Assembly: GCF_003265305.2 (NCBI RefSeq)
Contig: NZ_CP033459.1
Coordinates: 1,302,001-1,366,000 of the forward strand
Reading direction: 5' to 3'
From: Pseudoprevotella muciniphila
GTDB taxonomy: Bacteria; Bacteroidota; Bacteroidia; Bacteroidales; Bacteroidaceae
Length of the DNA stretch: 64,000 nucleotides
The stretch's first letter is position 1. Each line of letters begins with the position of its first letter. Shown piece after piece: positions 1,522-10,625 of the stretch. The translations under genes and the position numbers were made by a program. The notes beneath the pieces were generated by a model, which saw nothing but the letters and a program-made list of their open reading frames with translations, was not told where the DNA came from and ran no database searches.

Positions 1522-3180
1522 TCAGAACCCTATCCTGGCTCTCGGACGAGCCACATGGATGGGTACGATGTCCTCGGGAGTGAGCATGAGCAATTCGCGC
1601 TGACTCGCCGGCCGCTGTTTCATACACCGCTCTGCATGCCGGATGTAGATGCGTTCTAACTGGTTGGCGATGAAGCGGGCATTACCCCATGTGTCCGGGT
1701 CGCGTTCGCTATAGGCGCCTGAGATTATGCCGCAGAATTTTTCCCATGCCTCTGTGGTAAACTGATATTCGTAGTCCCTGATACGGCGACGGGTGATTTC
1801 AAGCAGTTCGGACACAGAAAAATCCTGAAACTCGAACATGTTAGGAAATCGCGACTGTAAGCCCGGATTACTATCAAGCATCTTCATCATGGGCTCCTTA
1901 TAACCGCAAAGCACAACGGCTATGTCGCGCTGCGTCTCGTCGGCAAGGATATTCATCAGCAGTGGCAGTACCAGTTTCCCGGGGTCGTGTTCGTGCTTGC
2001 CGTTCAGCAGATACGCCTCATCTATCATCAGCACACCACCCCTTGCCACCTCCAGCACTTGCCGTACCGACCGCTCTTCGTCGCCCCACAGCGTGCCTAT
2101 GAACGTACCGCGGTCGCACAATACCACATGCCCTTTCGACAGTGCGCCAGCCTGATGCAGCAGCGACCCATAAATCTTGCAGACAGTAGTCTTTCCTGTA
2201 CCCGGGCGTCCCAGAAAAACACTATGAAGCGACACGTCATGGCGCTTGCCATTCGGGAAGAGTTTACACATCATCTTGTTATAGTTGGTCAGCGCAACAA
2301 GTTCGTCCATCCTGCGCTTGATATCGCCACATCCCACCAAGTTGTCCAATTCCTCACGCGGGTTGTCAATAGGCTGCAGAATGTTCACCTTGACATTCAT
2401 GGTGGGGTTCTGCGAAATTGTTCCTTCAGGGAAGAGAAAATCATCAAAAACATTCTTGATATCTTTATTTTCTTCCTCATCATCATTGTCGCAACAGTTG
2501 TCAGATTCAGAGTTGGAATCCGACAGCAATCCATTGTTTTCATCAGGTGTCCTGAACAAGTCGTCAATATCGTCATCCACAACTTCTCCGACAGACGACA
2601 TCGATGTCGTAGCAATATCTACCGTAGCATCGTCGAGACTGAGATTGGAAATGACTCCCACGTACGACTTGCAACGCAAGGTGTCGTTCTCATTCACCTT
2701 TATCTTATGGCCTCTCAGCCGCCTGAAGTCGTCAATCACCCTGACATGATGAACATCCCACATCTCCTCCAAAGGATAGACATTGAGAATATTTGCTTCC
2801 GTCAGCAGCAATCCATACACATCCAAATTGGGACGGCTCTTCTCAAAGACCGTCTTTACCAAATCCACAGCCATCGCCACCTGCCATACCACACTTAAAC
2901 GCGGCGCTTGGTAGTCGGACAAAATGACAGCACTGAGATGCTTAGACTCGTCATAGATGCTCTTAGCACCATGACCGCAGTAATCAAGACATACGATGAC
3001 AACACTCGTATCGTTGCAATACATATAAGCGTCATAATCAGTCAGAAAGGGAGACAAGCCCTTCAAATGAGTAGAATATACGGCAGAGTCTGCCGCAAGA
3101 GCGTCCAGATGTTTCCAAACAGTATTCCGAGTCTGTTTCTTAATACCTTCAATCAGTCCATTTGCTTTCATAATCTTCAT
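1522..3180 (-). CDS. AAA+ ATPase, CbxX/CfxQ-like
   Basis: Protein of 552 residues. The C-terminal half is an AAA+ module of the CbxX/CfxQ (SpoVK-like) group: ...NLVGCGDIKRRMDELV, Walker A GRPGTGKTT near residue 327, Walker B VLMIDEAYLL, sensor region ADETQRDIAVVLCGY, and RFPNMFEF with an arginine-finger-like R. The first 230 residues are unlike known partners and are followed by an acidic low-complexity linker (SNSESDNCCDNDDEEENKD). Members of this group remodel protein complexes (Rubisco activases, EccA of type VII secretion); the substrate here is unknown. It is transcribed alone from a promoter about 360 bases upstream and lies just downstream of the HIRAN/J-domain cassette, so it may be a functional partner of it. 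Confidence 0.85.
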   Translation of the reverse strand: MKIMKANGLIEGIKKQTRNTVWKHLDALAADSAVYSTHLKGLSPFLTDYDAYMYCNDTSVVIVCLDYCGHGAKSIYDESKHLSAVILSDYQAPRLSVVWQVAMAVDLVKTVFEKSRPNLDVYGLLLTEANILNVYPLEEMWDVHHVRVIDDFRRLRGHKIKVNENDTLRCKSYVGVISNLSLDDATVDIATTSMSSVGEVVDDDIDDLFRTPDENNGLLSDSNSESDNCCDNDDEEENKDIKNVFDDFLFPEGTISQNPTMNVKVNILQPIDNPREELDNLVGCGDIKRRMDELVALTNYNKMMCKLFPNGKRHDVSLHSVFLGRPGTGKTTVCKIYGSLLHQAGALSKGHVVLCDRGTFIGTLWGDEERSVRQVLEVARGGVLMIDEAYLLNGKHEHDPGKLVLPLLMNILADETQRDIAVVLCGYKEPMMKMLDSNPGLQSRFPNMFEFQDFSVSELLEITRRRIRDYEYQFTTEAWEKFCGIISGAYSERDPDTWGNARFIANQLERIYIRHAERCMKQRPASQRELLMLTPEDIVPIHVARPRARIGF

Positions 3181-3540: not shown

Positions 3541-3572
3541 CAAATATAAACACGAACTTTTAAATTTCCAAA
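3541..3572 (-). promoter_or_regulatory. Bacteroidetes sigma-ABfr promoter for the AAA+ gene
   Basis: Read on the minus strand: TTTG at 3572-3569, exactly 20 bases, then TATATTTG at 3548-3541. This matches the TTTG/TAnnTTTG consensus in full. It lies between the end of the HIRAN cassette (3637) and the AAA+ gene. Confidence 0.65.
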
Positions 3573-3636: not shown

Positions 3637-4038
3637 TCAATAATCTATCTCTTTATGATTTTGAGCTGCATATTCCAGAATCTCGTCAGGACAAAAAATC
3701 TCATACACACCAAAACCCTCTAAATACTCACTATTTGGATGTTGTCTGCAAAACTGCTGATGTACTAACGATTGTATCTTGTCATATAAATGGGGTATAT
3801 GTTCTTTCAACAATTCGGTGTTGACAGTCTCTGAAATAGAATGTTCAAACCACAGATTATCCCAGGCCCAAATCATCATGTCAACTATGGATTGAATCTC
3901 GCTATCTGACAAATCTATAGATACTAAGAACTCTTGTCTTTCAAAATCTACACCAGTTATACTCATACTGATATCTATATCCGTCCAAGGCATTGTGTAG
4001 CACGGAAAAACATATTCCCCCGCTTTTAACTCCTTCAT
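3637..4038 (-). CDS. Hypothetical protein, last gene of the HIRAN/J-domain cassette
   Basis: Protein of 133 residues with no recognised domain and no signal peptide. It starts MKELKAGEYVFPCYTMPWTD and contains IQSIVDMMIWAWDNLWF and a helical C-terminal half with LYDKIQSLVHQQF. Only one base separates it from the preceding gene, so it is co-transcribed and probably coupled. Base composition is more AT-rich than in the HIRAN genes upstream. Function unknown; presence in the operon suggests a role alongside the HIRAN and EVE-like proteins. Confidence 0.7.
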   Translation of the reverse strand: MKELKAGEYVFPCYTMPWTDIDISMSITGVDFERQEFLVSIDLSDSEIQSIVDMMIWAWDNLWFEHSISETVNTELLKEHIPHLYDKIQSLVHQQFCRQHPNSEYLEGFGVYEIFCPDEILEYAAQNHKEIDY

Positions 4039-4039
4039 T

Positions 4040-4432
4040 TTATATAATTTCTATTAGTTTATCCTGATTGAAAAGACCGCCATCATCAGTATCTTCGGGT
4101 TTCACTTTCCATACTATTTGACCAACAGAGAAGTAATACAAATCTACATTAGTTGGCAACAAAGCCTTGACTTTATGAGCAAAATCTAATCCTTTTTCCC
4201 ACCATGCCTTCCATTGAGCATTTGTCCAGTGGTTTGTCTGATATAAGCTTTCATGATGCCAATCATAAAACCATTTTTCCAACCCATCAATACTGGATAA
4301 ATCTATTTCTGTTCCATTGTTATCTTCACCAAGCCAAATAGTGTCATAGCCACCAATGCAGCACCCCTCTTCATCCCAGAAGAGTGCTTCTCCATAATCA
4401 GGATACATTTCTATTCTATTTTTCTTTATCAT
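4040..4432 (-). CDS. Hypothetical tryptophan-rich protein in the HIRAN/J-domain cassette
   Basis: Protein of 130 residues, acidic and rich in aromatic residues (EKWFYDWHHESLYQTNHW, WKAWWEKGLDFAHK). It looks cytoplasmic, with no signal or membrane segment. The N-terminal part, MYPDYGEALFWDEEGCCIGG, is strand-rich and resembles the small barrels seen in many immunity-like or SUKH-like proteins, but I cannot assign a family. It is spaced 26 bases from the HIRAN gene upstream and 1 base from the next gene. Confidence 0.7.
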   Translation of the reverse strand: MIKKNRIEMYPDYGEALFWDEEGCCIGGYDTIWLGEDNNGTEIDLSSIDGLEKWFYDWHHESLYQTNHWTNAQWKAWWEKGLDFAHKVKALLPTNVDLYYFSVGQIVWKVKPEDTDDGGLFNQDKLIEII

Positions 4433-4458
4433 AAACTTTTTTCTTATTCCATCACCCG

Positions 4459-4845
4459 CTACTCAATCATAGAGATTTTAGCCTTGATGCGGAACCATTT
4501 GTTAATCCATTTTGTTTCTGTTACTCTGCAGACGAAGGCTTTTCCTGCGTCCATGAGGCGGGAGATGATGAGGTTGAGTTCCATGGGTACCCAGCCGATG
4601 CGTTCCTTGTCGAGATAGATGCCTATTGCCATTTCGTCGTGCTCGTTCTTGGGGTCGCGGAGCATGCGGAGGACGGTGCCCGTTGTTATTAGTGGTGCAA
4701 GTTCTTCCATATTGGTGCAATATGTGGTGCCTGCCACAACGATGTCGAGCAGGAATATCTCCCTCGTGAAAGGTGTAACTCCCCCACTACTTCCTCCAAG
4801 GAGCGCGAGGAGCGATTCGCTGATAGGTATGATTTGTCCTTCCAT
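4459..4845 (-). CDS. HIRAN-domain protein (copy 1)
   Basis: Protein of 128 residues. After a short helical N-terminus (ISESLLALLGGSSG) comes a HIRAN domain: EIFLLDIVVAGTTYC, GTVLRMLRDPKNEHDEMAIGIY, ERIGWVPMELNLIISRLMDAGK, then strands to the end (RIKAKISMIE). HIRAN domains bind 3' ends or damaged stretches of single-stranded DNA in HLTF/Rad5 helicases; here the domain stands alone. It is a paralogue of the gene at 5388-5786, sharing the N-terminal ISxSLLAL motif, FLxxxVxxTxY and the ISMxE end. Five bases separate it from the EVE-like gene. A partner helicase or nuclease was not found beside it. Confidence 0.75.
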   Translation of the reverse strand: MEGQIIPISESLLALLGGSSGGVTPFTREIFLLDIVVAGTTYCTNMEELAPLITTGTVLRMLRDPKNEHDEMAIGIYLDKERIGWVPMELNLIISRLMDAGKAFVCRVTETKWINKWFRIKAKISMIE

Positions 4846-4850
4846 AGTCG

Positions 4851-5363
4851 TTATTTACGAAGCCAATAGATGTAGTCGTTCTCGTAACGTCCGCACGTTG
4901 CCTTTTTCTCAAACTCTGCCCTATGTTCCTCCACGAAGGCTTCCCACAGCTTGTTCAGCAGTTCGCCATCGGCTTGGTCGAGCACCAAGCCTGAGTGTCC
5001 GTAATCCCATTCAAAGCCGGGTATCCTCGAAGCCAGGGTGGTTGTGGAGAGTATGGGTAGAGCATCAGGGTTTAGCATCATCGTAGGCTCATAGTTTACG
5101 TAGTATATTTTTCGTCCTTTACCACTCCAATCTTCACCTTTCATAGGGGAGGAATCAATAAAACCTGTGCCTATTATGCCCGTAGCACCCACACCGAGTT
5201 TTACCATATAATAGCGGTCGCCAATGGCTATCTTGTCGTAGTCCCACACACTCCAGTTGTTTTCCACTTCCTCGCCAAAGTTGAGATTGACAATATCATA
5301 AAGATAATTGAACATCGAATACGAAGAAAAATTCGGATTCCATTTTAATATTACAGTTGCCAT
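4851..5363 (-). CDS. EVE/PUA-like domain protein
   Basis: Protein of 170 residues without signal or membrane segments. The pattern ILKWNPNFSSY, a tryptophan loop, then KIAIGDRYYMVKLGVGATGI, IGTGFIDSSPM, W-x-G and YYVNYEP follows the strand order of EVE/PUA-like folds, which bind modified bases in DNA or RNA. This is a fold-level inference and no catalytic residue is expected. The gene sits between two HIRAN paralogues, 24 and 5 bases from its neighbours. A modified-base reader between two DNA-end-binding proteins suggests that the cassette senses unusual nucleic acid. Confidence 0.6.
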   Translation of the reverse strand: MATVILKWNPNFSSYSMFNYLYDIVNLNFGEEVENNWSVWDYDKIAIGDRYYMVKLGVGATGIIGTGFIDSSPMKGEDWSGKGRKIYYVNYEPTMMLNPDALPILSTTTLASRIPGFEWDYGHSGLVLDQADGELLNKLWEAFVEEHRAEFEKKATCGRYENDYIYWLRK

Positions 5364-5387
5364 AACCTTTGTATATCAGAGTTTCAT

Positions 5388-5786
5388 TTATTCTAACATA
5401 GAAATCTTAACAGTTATTTTTGCCATGGGGCGCTCTGTAAGGAATTCATTATATTGTTTCGCCCTGCTTATCCTGCATACAAAGCGTTTGCCCGCCGCCA
5501 GCAGGGCGGAGAAGATGCCGTCCTGCCCTTCCGGTAGCCAACCAAGCGAAGTGTCGTTCCATACCACCTCCACTGCCAACGGTCCCCTGTCGCTATCGGG
5601 CACAGCACGCATCTCTACTTCTGTCCCTTCTTTAAGCATGTAGAAGACGGACTCCGTCCTGTTGTAAGAGGTGTCTCTAAGCACAGTTTCCACGAGGAAC
5701 ACCTCTCTTGCCAAAGGCGGTCTTTCGTCCTTTCTTTCATCAATAAGTGCCAGCAACGAAGGGCTGATTTTTGCTAATTCGTTCAT
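5388..5786 (-). CDS. HIRAN-domain protein (copy 2)
   Basis: Protein of 132 residues, paralogous to the gene at 4459-4845. Visible elements are ISPSLLALIDE, REVFLVETVLRDTSYN, GTEVEMRAVPDSDRGPLAVEVVW, SLGWLPEGQDGIFSALLAAGK and a final strand KITVKISMLE. The canonical D-P-x-N-x-H-D segment is degenerate here (PDSDRG), so nucleic-acid binding may differ between the copies. Its start codon overlaps the stop of the J-domain gene by one base (5786), which indicates coupling. Confidence 0.7.
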   Translation of the reverse strand: MNELAKISPSLLALIDERKDERPPLAREVFLVETVLRDTSYNRTESVFYMLKEGTEVEMRAVPDSDRGPLAVEVVWNDTSLGWLPEGQDGIFSALLAAGKRFVCRISRAKQYNEFLTERPMAKITVKISMLE

Positions 5787-6574
5787 TATACTGTAAGCAG
5801 ATTTAGTCGTTCGGTGTACATCTGTTTCTGTTGCTCCAGTTCCTCACGCTCTTTTTTCAGTTCCTCTTTTTGTTCGTGGACCCAGGCTGGGTTGAGCAGT
5901 TGCTGCCTCATATTGAGCGGGAACGCAGCATGGAGTTCTTCTATGCATTGCTTCATGTCGTCTATCTGCTCTTTCAGGCGTTTGATAACCTCATCGATGG
6001 TTTCTTCCCGCAGGAGCACATCTTCCGCATCGTCTTCGAGGTCGAGTCGCATGATGATGTTGCGCAGCAGTGTGAGGTTGTGGGTTCTGTAGGCGGTCTG
6101 TCCCTGTATGAACAGGTCTTTCATTTTCTCAGACAAGTCGGGGTGGAGGTCGGGGTGCAGACGCTTGACAAGCACACGGAAAAGTTGCTGCATCTCGGCA
6201 GCGTCATATTTGTTGATAAGCCGTGCCTCCTCCGCCAACCTGATGGCTTCTGCCTGTTCATTGATTTGTTTGTAATAATCCTGAAGGCGCGCGTCCACTT
6301 CCATCTGTATGACAATCATGTTAGGACGTTCGTCACGGTTCAATGCCGCCTGCGCCATCTCCACTTTCATCTTCAGTGCCCGCACTTCTACAGAGAGCAG
6401 GAAATTCTCATACTTGTCCTTGCCTATAAGATTGACATACCTGACATAGAGGTCGTCGCGGTCTTCATTCAGCAGACGGTCCTTCTCGGTGTAAAGCGTG
6501 AGAAATTCCTGACGGAGACGCTCCACTTCGGCTTTCTTCTCTATTGTCGAGGGACTGATTACTATTGCTTCCAT
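5786..6574 (-). CDS. Coiled-coil protein with J-domain-like segment
   Basis: Protein of 262 residues. Residues 1-115 and 190-262 are predicted coiled coil (KKAEVERLRQEFLTLY; KKEREELEQQKQMYTERL). Between them, near residues 125-165, is a J-domain-like helix-loop-helix, LFRVLVKRLHPDLHPDL followed by KDLFIQGQTAYRTHNL. The HPD triplet that stimulates Hsp70 ATPase occurs twice (HPDLHPD). The helix I and IV parts of a full DnaJ are weak. It is the first gene of the six-gene cassette, with a promoter just upstream. It probably recruits DnaK to a complex with the HIRAN/EVE-like proteins; this last point is inference. Confidence 0.7.
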   Translation of the reverse strand: MEAIVISPSTIEKKAEVERLRQEFLTLYTEKDRLLNEDRDDLYVRYVNLIGKDKYENFLLSVEVRALKMKVEMAQAALNRDERPNMIVIQMEVDARLQDYYKQINEQAEAIRLAEEARLINKYDAAEMQQLFRVLVKRLHPDLHPDLSEKMKDLFIQGQTAYRTHNLTLLRNIIMRLDLEDDAEDVLLREETIDEVIKRLKEQIDDMKQCIEELHAAFPLNMRQQLLNPAWVHEQKEELKKEREELEQQKQMYTERLNLLTV

Positions 6575-6598
6575 GTCATTTCACTTTTTTTAATAATG

Positions 6599-6627
6599 CA
6601 AAGTTACAAGTCGTGTCGGCAAAAATA
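6599..6627 (-). promoter_or_regulatory. Candidate promoter(s) of the J-domain/HIRAN cassette
   Basis: Two -7 type boxes on the minus strand, TAACTTTG at 6606-6599 and TATTTTTG at 6627-6620, lie 25-50 bases before the J-domain start and after the WYL gene. No perfect -33 TTTG at 20 bases was seen for either box. The position fits a promoter controlled by the adjacent WYL regulator. Confidence 0.45.
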
Positions 6628-6649
6628 ATTCCGAGTAGAAAATTTTAGG

Positions 6650-7597
6650 TTATTTTTTTTCTGAATGATAGAAGTCGTCCATGATTTCTGCTTCGGTAGC
6701 CATGAGTTGACGCAACTCAGCAGGCTCGAGTACCTCGGCTTCAGCCCCGAACGAAAGGATGGCGCGAACGAAATCTATGGTAGGATGCAAGAAGAATTCA
6801 AATACGCTATAATCATCATAAACCTGCAGTTCTTTCTGCGAGGAGTGCAAAGGCAGTGTACGCAGATAGTCTCGCTGCTCGCCATCGAAACGGACCAGTA
6901 CACGCTGCAAAGGCACATCATAGCCTATACAGATGCCAAAGTGCGCGGCAAAAAACTCTTCCGGTGAAAATTCTTCTGGAAATACAAAGGTCTTATCTGT
7001 CAGTTCCAGATGATGTATGCGGTCCAAGGCATAGACTTTAAGGCTACCATACTGCCTGAATTCTGCAGGTGCAGAATTAGAGACCTTTTCCTTGGGATTG
7101 TGACAGAGAACGTACCAACGGCGATTGCACACCTTCACACAGTAGGGTTCCACCTCTATTGGCGTATTGTCGATCTCATCGCTGAATCTGCGGTAAGTCA
7201 GCCTGACCACCCTCCCATCCTCCATCGCCCCGATGATGTCGGTTAGGAAAGTGTCGCCCGAAGGGATGTTTTCCAACAATATACGGCTCTGCACATGCCG
7301 TTTGCGTTCCACCACATCGCTGACAGCGAGCGACTGTATCAACCAACGCTGAGGCGATTTGTAATCGAGCGAATCGTAGTTCTTCAGTTGATACGCGTCG
7401 TTGTCATACTTGATTTGTATGCCGAAGAGTTCATCGATTTTTGCCCGCCAGTTGTAAAGCGTACGCACCTGGAGCGGATGGTTCGACTCATAGAGCGAGG
7501 AGCGTTCAAAACTTTCTCTGAGTTCTGCGAACTTCATGGGGCGTTTGCTTAGTTTGTCAATCAGCCACAGATAGTGTTTCAAAGGTATTTTTGCCAT
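6650..7597 (-). CDS. WYL-domain transcriptional regulator
   Basis: Protein of 315 residues. An N-terminal winged-helix region (SKRPMKFAELRESFE, QVRTLYNWRAKIDELFGIQIKY) is followed from about residue 120 by a WYL domain: AMEDGRVVRLTYRRF, VEPYCVKVCNRRWYVLCHNP and YALDRIHHLELTDKTF. A WCX-like C-terminal part ends in AEIMDDFYHSEKK. WYL regulators bind nucleic-acid-derived or nucleotide ligands and often control phage-defence or DNA-repair loci. It lies 75 bases upstream of the J-domain/HIRAN operon in the same direction, with its own start, so it is the likely regulator of that operon. DNA-binding sites were not identified. Confidence 0.85.
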   Translation of the reverse strand: MAKIPLKHYLWLIDKLSKRPMKFAELRESFERSSLYESNHPLQVRTLYNWRAKIDELFGIQIKYDNDAYQLKNYDSLDYKSPQRWLIQSLAVSDVVERKRHVQSRILLENIPSGDTFLTDIIGAMEDGRVVRLTYRRFSDEIDNTPIEVEPYCVKVCNRRWYVLCHNPKEKVSNSAPAEFRQYGSLKVYALDRIHHLELTDKTFVFPEEFSPEEFFAAHFGICIGYDVPLQRVLVRFDGEQRDYLRTLPLHSSQKELQVYDDYSVFEFFLHPTIDFVRAILSFGAEAEVLEPAELRQLMATEAEIMDDFYHSEKK

Positions 7598-9425: not shown

Positions 9426-10625
9426 ATGGCAAAAAAACATCTGAAGAAAGAAGAATTCTTGAATTTCGACGAATATATTCGTCAGGGCGAGCCTGCGCAA
9501 CGTGAACGTGCAGACGCCTGGCGTGTGGCTATAGGCTTGCAGGCTGTAGATGGACTGAAGACTTCCGAATATCTACAGCAGACCGCCCGTCGAAACATTG
9601 AAGGTGAGATTACCATAGACGAGGCACGCGAACTGGTAAAGACATACTATATTTCTAAAACACAGCGCGAGCCTGACGATGATGATAAGCAGGAGGCAGA
9701 TCAAGTGTCTGCCAACATCACCAAGATTCTCTCTGCCGACACACTGGACTTTAGCACGAAAGGATACGTTTCTCTGCATCGCAGAATTTTTGAAGGTGTA
9801 TTCAAACATGCCGGACGCATACGCGATTACAATATCACCAAGAAGGAGTGGGTGCTGGAGTATGACACAGTACATTATTTGAACTGGGAGGATTTGCGCA
9901 GGGCTATAGACTACGACATCGAACAGGAACGAAGTTTCAGTTATAAAGGACTTTCGTCAGATGAACTTATTGCCCATGTTACTCGTTTTGTGTCGGGAAT
10001 ATGGCAGATTCACGCCTTTGGCGAAGGGAACACCCGAACCACTGCCGTTTTCGCCATTCAGTACCTTCGCTCCTTGGGATTTAGCGTGGATAATAATGCG
10101 TTTGCCAAGCATTCCTGGTATTTCCGTAATGCTTTGGTGAGGGCAAACTATAAGAGTGCAGTGAAAGGCATTGACTACAGTCCTATATATCTGGAGCGAT
10201 TTTTCCGTAACCTGCTGCTGGGTGAACAGTGGGACTTGCGCAACAGATACCTACATATCCATCCTACGGAGGAATGGAGCGTGCAACCCAATCTCGGCAG
10301 CCCCACAAGTACCCCACAAGTACCCCGCAAGTACCCCACAAGTACCCCACAAGTACAGGACAAGTTGCATACAAGCAATCCTTATATTATAAGACTTTTG
10401 CAAGTAGTAGGAGAACGTGAACTTTCAGTAAAGGAAATTATGGAAGGTCTTGAACTAAAGGACAGGAAAAATGTTTTGAACCTTTACCTCAGCCCTGCCA
10501 TCTATGATGGATTTATTCGTTTGCTTTTTCCTGACTCTCCCCGTCATCCACGTCAGAAATACTTGCTGACAGTAAAGGGACTGGCACTCTATGATGAAAT
10601 CAACAAAACGAAGGAGAAACCATGA
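9426..10625 (+). CDS. Fic-domain AMP-transferase
   Basis: Protein of 399 residues. The Fic core near residue 195 reads HAFGEGNTRT, a recognised variant of HPFx(D/E)GNGR with the catalytic histidine; GLSSDELIAHVTRFVSGIWQ precedes it. The N-terminus (residues 38-72, NIEGEITIDEARELVKTYY) resembles the VbhA-like antitoxin helix that blocks ATP binding, although the S/T-xxx-E-G pattern is not complete. Residues 292-318 are a threonine/proline/glutamine linker coded by 12-base repeats. The C-terminus (SVKEIMEGLELKDRKNVLNLYLSPA) looks like a winged helix. Fic enzymes add AMP to hydroxyls of target proteins; the target is unknown. It stands alone between eno and a REP-like element. Confidence 0.88.
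   Translation: MAKKHLKKEEFLNFDEYIRQGEPAQRERADAWRVAIGLQAVDGLKTSEYLQQTARRNIEGEITIDEARELVKTYYISKTQREPDDDDKQEADQVSANITKILSADTLDFSTKGYVSLHRRIFEGVFKHAGRIRDYNITKKEWVLEYDTVHYLNWEDLRRAIDYDIEQERSFSYKGLSSDELIAHVTRFVSGIWQIHAFGEGNTRTTAVFAIQYLRSLGFSVDNNAFAKHSWYFRNALVRANYKSAVKGIDYSPIYLERFFRNLLLGEQWDLRNRYLHIHPTEEWSVQPNLGSPTSTPQVPRKYPTSTPQVQDKLHTSNPYIIRLLQVVGERELSVKEIMEGLELKDRKNVLNLYLSPAIYDGFIRLLFPDSPRHPRQKYLLTVKGLALYDEINKTKEKP
10301..10360 (+). repeat. 12-base tandem repeat within the Fic gene
   Basis: About five units close to CCCCACAAGTAC follow one another; one carries CCCCGCAAGTAC. They encode the Thr-Pro-Gln-Val/Lys-Tyr-Pro-Thr-Ser linker between the Fic core and the C-terminal helix-turn-helix. Because the unit is a multiple of three, gain or loss of copies would change only the linker length. 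Confidence 0.85.

What the first reader, a model, noticed from the sequence alone, without database searches (positions are those of the whole stretch)
3637..7597. WYL-controlled HIRAN / EVE-like / J-domain cassette: candidate undescribed system
Seven minus-strand genes are packed with gaps of 26 bases or less after the first: WYL regulator, coiled-coil protein with a J-domain HPD motif, HIRAN, EVE/PUA-like, HIRAN, and two unknown proteins. HIRAN domains bind DNA ends, EVE domains read modified bases, WYL regulators often control defence loci, and a J-domain implies Hsp70 recruitment. I know of no named system with this set. There is no obvious nuclease or helicase, so the effector may be one of the two unknown proteins or the AAA+ ATPase next door.
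Basis: partly seen in the sequence, partly recalled or inferred. Interest (0 to 1): 0.78.

Follow-up and report, generated by a model that had tools for sequence, protein, structure and literature searches.

The report
DNA-end sensor paired with chaperone helper
Inside this seven-gene cluster sits a two-gene unit, found side by side in many bacteria, that joins a protein likely to grip broken DNA ends with one likely to call in the cell's protein-unfolding chaperone; the pairing looks undescribed and could reveal a way bacteria clear proteins off damaged or cut DNA.

Summary
The seven genes are real and the domain guesses hold: WYL regulator, J-domain protein, two HIRAN proteins (one divergent) and an EVE/YTH-like fold. 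But the seven-gene set did not recur in any locus examined. What recurs is a pair: the J-domain gene upstream of one HIRAN gene, most often overlapping, in 75 of 80 HIRAN-selected loci (2 of the 5 exceptions lie at contig ends). HPD is kept in 76 of 76 J-proteins. HIRANs of other kinds lack the J-gene (0 of 73 viral loci, 0 of 14 other loci in the genus). WYL meets HIRAN, sometimes EVE, without the J-gene; EVE lies beside the pair in 4 of 75; the last two genes are near-orphans. Restriction genes lie just upstream in at least 7 of 75, but a near/far PADLOC comparison was not significant. More distant J-relatives (38 of 49 loci in a phylum sample) lack HIRAN; some adjoin WD40 proteins. Best reading: a DNA-end-targeted Hsp70 co-chaperone that clears proteins from exposed 3' ends during DNA damage or restriction; anatomy shown, mechanism inferred. 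Rows listed by eight library searches showed no such pair.

The parts
6650..7597 (-). WYL-WCX transcription regulator, first gene of the cluster
   Evidence: Pfam WYL 2.9e-10, WCX 6.9e-13; relatives in 42 of 61 genomes, own included, so a common family; HIRAN lies near its relatives in 3 of 14 WYL-first regions
5786..6574 (-). J-domain protein with long N- and C-terminal helices (JD), core gene 1
   Evidence: DnaJ in 47 of 52 relatives scanned; HPD in 76 of 76; model pLDDT 87.4, all helical, HPD (140-142) in the loop between helices 122-139 and 149-163
5388..5786 (-). HIRAN 1 (HIR1), divergent copy in the canonical position directly behind JD
   Evidence: Pfam HIRAN 0.0013, below cut-off; keeps 9 of the 19 columns invariant in the 11 HIRANs of A3 and loses 10, among them N67, D70 and R63; very long branch, placement unresolved
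4851..5363 (-). EVE/YTH/PUA-superfamily fold, probable modified-base reader, optional part
   Evidence: model pLDDT 82.1, pTM 0.81; Foldseek probability 1.00 to EVE, YTH and ASCH structures, best E 2.7e-4; relatives beside the pair in L031, L043, L086 and, weakly (1e-5), L087
4459..4845 (-). HIRAN 2 (HIR2), core gene 2 by sequence
   Evidence: Pfam HIRAN 5.9e-10; 80% identical to the JD-partner HIRAN of L027
4040..4432 (-). U1, unknown small protein; probably not part of the core
   Evidence: 2 of 151 family genomes, own included; GC 0.34-0.37 in this stretch against 0.42-0.52 in the rest of the cluster
3637..4038 (-). U2, unknown small protein; probably not part of the core
   Evidence: 1 of 151 family genomes, the own one; low GC
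1522..3180 (-). Neighbouring AAA+ ATPase of SpoVK/CbbX type, 456 bp beyond U2; not seen as a conserved partner
   Evidence: TIGR02881 3e-55 but below its cut-off; no match to it at E <= 0.001 in the 80 HIRAN loci; promoter-like site at 3541-3572, number of such sites not above chance

Best explanation
The core is a two-gene unit, JD + HIRAN, that works as a DNA-end-targeted Hsp70 co-chaperone. The HIRAN protein binds an exposed 3' DNA end (stalled fork, break or restriction cut); its J-domain partner recruits DnaK and triggers its ATPase, so that proteins stuck at that end (a restriction enzyme after cleavage, a stalled replication or phage protein) are pulled off or unfolded. In this strain the pair has gained a second, degenerate HIRAN, an EVE-type fold that could tell own from foreign DNA by its modified bases, and a WYL regulator that could switch the operon on when single-stranded DNA accumulates. 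Shown: anatomy, domains or folds, conserved linkage, conserved HPD. Inferred: that the two proteins form a complex, DNA-end binding, the client, the regulation.
For: JD upstream of HIRAN in 75 of 80 HIRAN-selected loci; commonest spacings are overlaps of 8 bp (24 loci) and 4 bp (11 loci). Other HIRANs lack JD: 0 of 73 viral loci, 0 of 14 other genus loci; both are more distant HIRANs. HPD 76 of 76 although JD was not used to select the loci. J-domain by profile. HLTF N91 corresponds to HIR2 N67, N in 81 of 81 rows and outside the scan patterns; N90A-N91A disrupts HLTF HIRAN function, and HLTF uses HIRAN plus its motor to eject Cas9 after cleavage (PMC11237066, passages). JD and HIRAN identities correlate, r 0.833 over 72 loci, 0 of 2000 permutations as high (shared ancestry alone can give this). 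Restriction genes just upstream in at least 7 of 75. WYL regulators that bind ssDNA: PafBC and DriD (title and abstract starts).
Against: No complex was predicted or tested. HIRAN positions equivalent to HLTF H110 and K113 (contacts recalled) are not conserved, so end binding may differ. Full-length but more distant JD relatives in 38 of 49 phylum-sample loci have no HIRAN; of the 11 with HIRAN, 8 come from one genus. PADLOC near/far comparison p 0.13. Many pairs sit among housekeeping genes. The full JD model has no Foldseek match at E <= 0.001.
Confidence: 0.45

Rival explanations
1. The pair is a phage-defence unit proper: HIRAN detects phage DNA ends or replication intermediates, and the J-protein guards or diverts the DnaK system to stop phage production or trigger dormancy.
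For: Patchy, accessory distribution: 0 of 36 congeners, 13 of 393 order genomes, own included; restriction enzymes, GmrSD and a type I R subunit among neighbours, one near gene matching HmaA; HIRAN-Hip kinase units already proposed as phage sensors (PMC8262856, passages); host DnaJ needed for phage sensing by bNACHT25 (PMC12169576, abstract).
Against: No toxin or effector domain recognised in the pair; no JD found by tblastn with the window protein in 50,697 phage or 72,556 plasmid records; JD matches no PADLOC family; near/far comparison p 0.13, and far genes also include defence matches such as PglZ, MzaC and AbiEii.
Confidence: 0.25
2. The HIRAN protein is a protein-binding adaptor here, not a DNA-end sensor; the pair is a dedicated folding helper for particular clients such as large restriction enzymes.
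For: 0-38 bp spacing behind Eco57I-type, type ISP and GmrSD enzymes in L045, L058, L091 and L071; a conserved N-terminal stretch with LL before the HIRAN fold; specialised J-proteins with dedicated roles exist (AtcJ, PMC6715715, abstract start).
Against: The residue needed for HLTF HIRAN function is kept in 81 of 81 rows; most upstream neighbours listed are not restriction genes by the partial scan made.
Confidence: 0.2
3. One reading: the seven genes form one integrated WYL-controlled system with the effector in U1/U2 or the AAA+ ATPase.
For: Co-directional and tightly spaced; WYL, HIRAN and EVE also meet in L132 and L144, and EVE beside JD-HIRAN in four loci.
Against: No other locus examined has the set; U1 and U2 in 2 and 1 of 151 genomes with low GC; no relative of the AAA+ protein in 80 loci.
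Confidence: 0.06

Closest known systems
HLTF/Rad5 HIRAN domain (eukaryotic fork remodeller)
   Same: HIRAN fold and the N91-equivalent asparagine; use of HIRAN to aim an ATP-driven remover at 3' ends (PMC4666394 and PMC11237066, passages)
   Different: HLTF carries its own translocase motor; here the proposed motor is host DnaK recruited by a separate J-protein
HipI-HipN and HipL (HIRAN linked to HipA-type kinases), and diDNase-HipA-HIRAN clusters
   Same: bacterial HIRAN next to or fused with a partner, suggested to sense DNA ends of phages (PMC8262856, PMC11706625, passages)
   Different: HipN joins HIRAN to a HipS-like domain with a kinase partner; the JD-type HIRAN is a 128-aa protein and its partner is a J-protein. 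PADLOC PDC-M03B matches HIR2 only over part of the model
AtcJ (Shewanella J-domain co-chaperone for cold adaptation)
   Same: a specialised J-protein working with DnaK (PMC6715715, abstract start only)
   Different: its partners (recalled: AtcA, AtcB, AtcC) are not HIRAN; role is cold adaptation
CbpA (curved-DNA-binding J-protein)
   Same: links a J-like domain to DNA (named in PMC7464499, passage; function recalled)
   Different: DNA binding lies in the same chain; here it would lie in a separate HIRAN subunit
EVE-HNH and EVE-AAA restriction-type proteins
   Same: a relative of the EVE-like protein is fused to HNH in L138; a protein with Pfam EVE and AAA_5 lies behind the pair in L045
   Different: in the window the fold stands alone without a nuclease

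Membership tests
HIRAN domain (PF08797) | profile score over the curated cut-off | tested here: met
   HIR2 39.3 bits against 24.7; HIR1 19 bits, not met for that copy
HIRAN domain (PF08797) | N91-equivalent asparagine needed for HLTF HIRAN function | tested here: met
   N in 81 of 81 rows, HIR2 included; HIR1 has S there in alignment A2
HIRAN domain (PF08797) | binding of 3' DNA ends | not testable with these tools
   needs biochemistry
J-domain proteins (PF00226) | HPD motif between two helices | tested here: met
   HPD 76 of 76; helices 122-139 and 149-163 flank it in the model
J-domain proteins (PF00226) | profile match | tested here: met
   47 of 52 members at E <= 0.01, best 1.3e-8; the window sequence itself only 0.024 and below cut-off
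J-domain proteins (PF00226) | stimulation of Hsp70 ATPase | not testable with these tools
   needs biochemistry
EVE/YTH/PUA superfamily | fold | tested here: met
   Foldseek probability 1.00, TM-score by query 0.42-0.55 for the top five
EVE domain (PF01878) | Pfam match | tested here: not met
   no EVE match at E <= 1; so the fold, not the Pfam family, is shown
WYL regulators | WYL and WCX domains over cut-off | tested here: met
   40.4 and 49.2 bits
Any system in PADLOC-DB 2.0.0 | JD and HIRAN both matched by models of one system | tested here: not met
   JD no match at E <= 1; HIRAN only PDC-M03B, over part of the profile

The most novel reading that the evidence does not exclude
JD-HIRAN is the bacterial, Hsp70-powered counterpart of HLTF: a widespread module that uses a DNA-end sensor to hand end-bound proteins to DnaK. 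The J family is modular, its targeting subunit swapped between lineages (HIRAN for DNA ends, WD40 propellers in other branches), so DnaK would have a dedicated DNA-repair or restriction role not so far recognised.
Probability: 0.3. Interest if true: 0.85.

Novelty: new variant of a known kind. Interest (0 to 1): 0.6.

Why it matters
If right, bacteria aim the general Hsp70 machine at broken or cut DNA through a small sensor protein, a job done in eukaryotes by a protein with its own motor. It would suggest how tightly bound restriction or replication proteins are cleared from DNA ends, and it gives a two-gene unit that can be tested directly in laboratory strains.

Tried and rejected
Seven-gene system: rejected because no other locus examined has it and U1/U2 are near-orphans. 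AAA+ as partner: no match to it in the 80 loci; in 58 genus genomes, 10 with a match, own included, the others only 30-36% alike; one relative, in L348, is fused to a HIRAN, noted but not counted as support. HIR1 derived from the WYL-type HIRANs: by path it lies nearer to JD-type HIRANs, but on a long unresolved branch, so its origin stays open. Foldseek with the full JD model: 0 matches at E <= 0.001. No JD in the phage or plasmid records; no EVE or U1 relative in viral contigs (single-protein queries reach close relatives only). PADLOC near/far: 4 members for the best type IIG model among 114 near genes, 0 of 87 far genes, p 0.13. The near answer lists only the first 25 of 146 redundant families, the far answer all 17 of its families, so 4 is a lower bound. 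9 of the 123 picked near genes were left out of A7 (EVE-like neighbours and short or doubtful ORFs; list). Restriction neighbours were picked for Pfam by eye, so 'at least 7 of 75' has no base rate. One of 22 J slices (L072) was left out because the script had cut it at the wrong place. Literature: eight searches were answered; none of the rows listed describes a HIRAN/J-domain pair, but only part of the matching papers is listed (for example 20 of 38, 25 of 64,165), and most subscription papers are not held. Iyer et al. 2006 on HIRAN was seen only as a reference.
Full report
What is there. The window lies in a 2.92 Mb single-contig genome; the closest named records for HIR2 are of Prevotella and Bacteroides. 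WYL and WCX domains are clear; HIRAN is clear in 4459-4845 (HIR2) and weak in 5388-5786 (HIR1); the J-domain and the EVE-like fold are not convincing from the window sequences alone. In PADLOC only the WYL and HIRAN proteins of the cluster match anything at E <= 1.

Testing the domains with relatives. Of 52 J-proteins scanned singly (52 of the 76 rows held), 47 match DnaJ at E <= 0.01, best 1.3e-8. An 81-residue slice around HPD from 21 sequences matches solved J-domains at 2.1e-8. The model of the window protein, built on those 52 sequences, is all helical with mean pLDDT 87.4; HPD (140-142) lies in the loop between helices 122-139 and 149-163, as in J-domains (recalled). The HIRAN profile matches solved 3k2y at 1.7e-11 and HLTF at 0.0035. 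The EVE-like protein, with only 5 sequences, gives pLDDT 82.1 and pTM 0.81; Foldseek ranks EVE-type (2p5d, 1wmm, 2eve; family names partly recalled), YTH, ASCH and THYN1 structures first, probability 1.00, best E 2.7e-4.

What recurs. In the order sample 13 of 393 genomes have a JD match, own included; of the 12 others, the 10 with E <= 4.3e-16 have a HIRAN gene directly behind JD, the 2 weak ones have none found. Among the genes called in the 5-18 kb held around these 10, no WYL, EVE or second HIRAN was found. A pattern scan of the genome collection with the HIRAN alignment gave 93 confirmed relatives, of which the best 80 were kept; JD lies upstream of HIRAN in 75. Of the 5 others, in L055 and L089 HIRAN starts within 42 bases of the end of the held contig; in L092, L099 and L104 no JD was found. 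Commonest spacings are overlaps of 8 bp (24 loci) and 4 bp (11); the extremes are -121 and +447 bp, the larger overlaps partly due to my start-codon choice. By record title the pair loci span Bacteroidota, Chlorobiota, Acidobacteriota, Bacillota, Spirochaetota and Actinomycetota, many of them MAGs. Other HIRANs lack JD: 0 of 73 viral loci and 0 of 14 further loci in the genus; these HIRANs are more distant, so they are controls for HIRANs at large, not for this subfamily. HPD is kept in 76 of 76. JD and HIRAN identities correlate over 72 loci, r 0.833, 0 of 2000 permutations as high, though shared descent alone can do this. JD is less conserved than HIRAN in 99.8% of pairs (mean identity 0.32 against 0.49); in the 8 of 12 close pairs with usable estimates for both genes dN is below dS.

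Results that limit the pair. A JD profile run over 395 phylum genomes hit 49, own included. Of 49 loci fetched, the 11 best-scoring (E <= 4.7e-53) have HIRAN adjacent, one of them (L276) as a shortened ORF, and the other 38 have none found; 8 of the 11 come from one genus. HPD is present in 36 of those 38; the exceptions are a 75-aa fragment and a stop-interrupted match. Over 37 of these loci (L281-L317; in L281 the gene caller missed the J-gene), a WD40 cluster occurs in 8, a 495-aa family without Pfam match in 12 and an M61 peptidase cluster in 11 (each cluster named from one or two scanned members). So the J family is broader than the pair, and HIRAN is the partner of one branch.

The other genes. 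WYL relatives occur in 42 of 61 genomes, own included. Of 14 WYL-first regions fetched, 3 (L144, L151, L152) have HIRAN nearby and 1 (L144) EVE; none has JD. Further cases came in through other searches: L132 (WYL, HIRAN, SIMPL, EVE fragment) and L326 (WYL, HIRAN). EVE relatives occur in 13 of 393 order genomes, own included; they lie beside JD-HIRAN in L031, L043, L086 and, weakly, L087, but none of the 11 EVE-first regions fetched (of 12 other matches) has JD; 1 has HIRAN and 2 have WYL. WYL, HIRAN and EVE thus keep company in more than one combination. HIR1 takes the canonical place behind JD but has lost 10 of the 19 columns invariant in the 11 HIRANs of A3, among them the HLTF N91 equivalent; in the 80 loci no second full-length HIRAN was found. 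U1 and U2 occur in 2 and 1 of 151 family genomes, own included, with lower GC. None of the cassette genes was found among the genes called in the roughly 4-12 kb held upstream of enolase in six congeners, and JD is absent from all 36 congeners: the locus is accessory.

Defence setting. Just upstream of JD lie an Eco57I enzyme (L045, 38 bp), a type ISP enzyme (L058, 0 bp), DUF7149-Eco57I enzymes (L091, 30 bp; L090 as fragments), GmrSD (L071, 18 bp; L038, one small ORF between) and an Eco57I fragment (L063, one small ORF between): at least 7 of 75. L046 has a type I R subunit about 0.9 kb upstream, L028 a UDG-family protein 75 bp upstream. Many other loci are flanked by ordinary housekeeping genes.

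How it most likely works. HLTF recognises a 3' end with its HIRAN domain; the N90A-N91A mutant is impaired in this, and HLTF then drives Cas9 off cleaved DNA with its motor (PMC11237066, passages). Y72 and Y93 border the nucleotide pocket in HLTF (PMC4666394, passage). Y93 corresponds to HIR2 position 69 (Y, H or F in 76 of 81) by the HMMER alignment, and by motif (my reading) Y72 to position 42 (Y, F or H in 78 of 81). The bacterial pair keeps the sensor and replaces the motor by a J-protein, whose established general job is to engage Hsp70. I therefore propose a DNA-end-targeted Hsp70 co-chaperone. WYL regulators that sense ssDNA (PafBC, DriD; title and abstract starts) fit an operon switched on by DNA damage. 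No biochemical step was tested.

Novelty. None of the rows listed by eight library searches describes a HIRAN/J-domain pair; the lists are partial. Known bacterial HIRAN settings seen are Hip kinases and diDNase clusters (PMC8262856, PMC11706625, passages). I file it as a new variant of a known kind, a specialised J-protein with a separate targeting subunit, not as a member of a named defence system.

Noticed in passing
9426-10625 +: Fic protein beyond enolase matches the PADLOC candidate PDC-S72 at 7.9e-125; a candidate defence gene close by.
   Followed up: no
L348:3533-5587 (-), with WYL at 1041-1586: A 684-aa protein with an N-terminal HIRAN and a C-terminal AAA domain like the window's AAA+ neighbour, and a WYL fragment about 2 kb away.
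   Followed up: partly
L065:1046-8393: SNF2-type helicase, a protein with an Hsp70/actin-like start (my reading; no Pfam match), a 544-aa protein, then JD and HIRAN, all in one direction.
   Followed up: partly
L138:7466-8281 +: EVE-like domain in one protein with an HNH nuclease domain (Pfam 1.9e-7).
   Followed up: no
L099:443-3121: JD-type HIRAN without JD, directly behind what looks like DNA topoisomerase III (name from reading the sequence, no search).
   Followed up: no
L282, L283, L286, L287, L288, L290, L291, L294: Distant J-proteins in other branches of the phylum sit between a roughly 495-aa family without Pfam match and an M61 peptidase (one member of each scanned in full context).
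   Followed up: partly
4040-4432 -; G496:C26:7671-8867: U1 has two tandem relatives inside one 434-aa frame in G496, perhaps a repeated immunity-type protein (guess).
   Followed up: no
L169:649-1560: A viral contig carries a WYL protein like the window's (3.7e-44) and a HIRAN gene 3.4 kb away.
   Followed up: no
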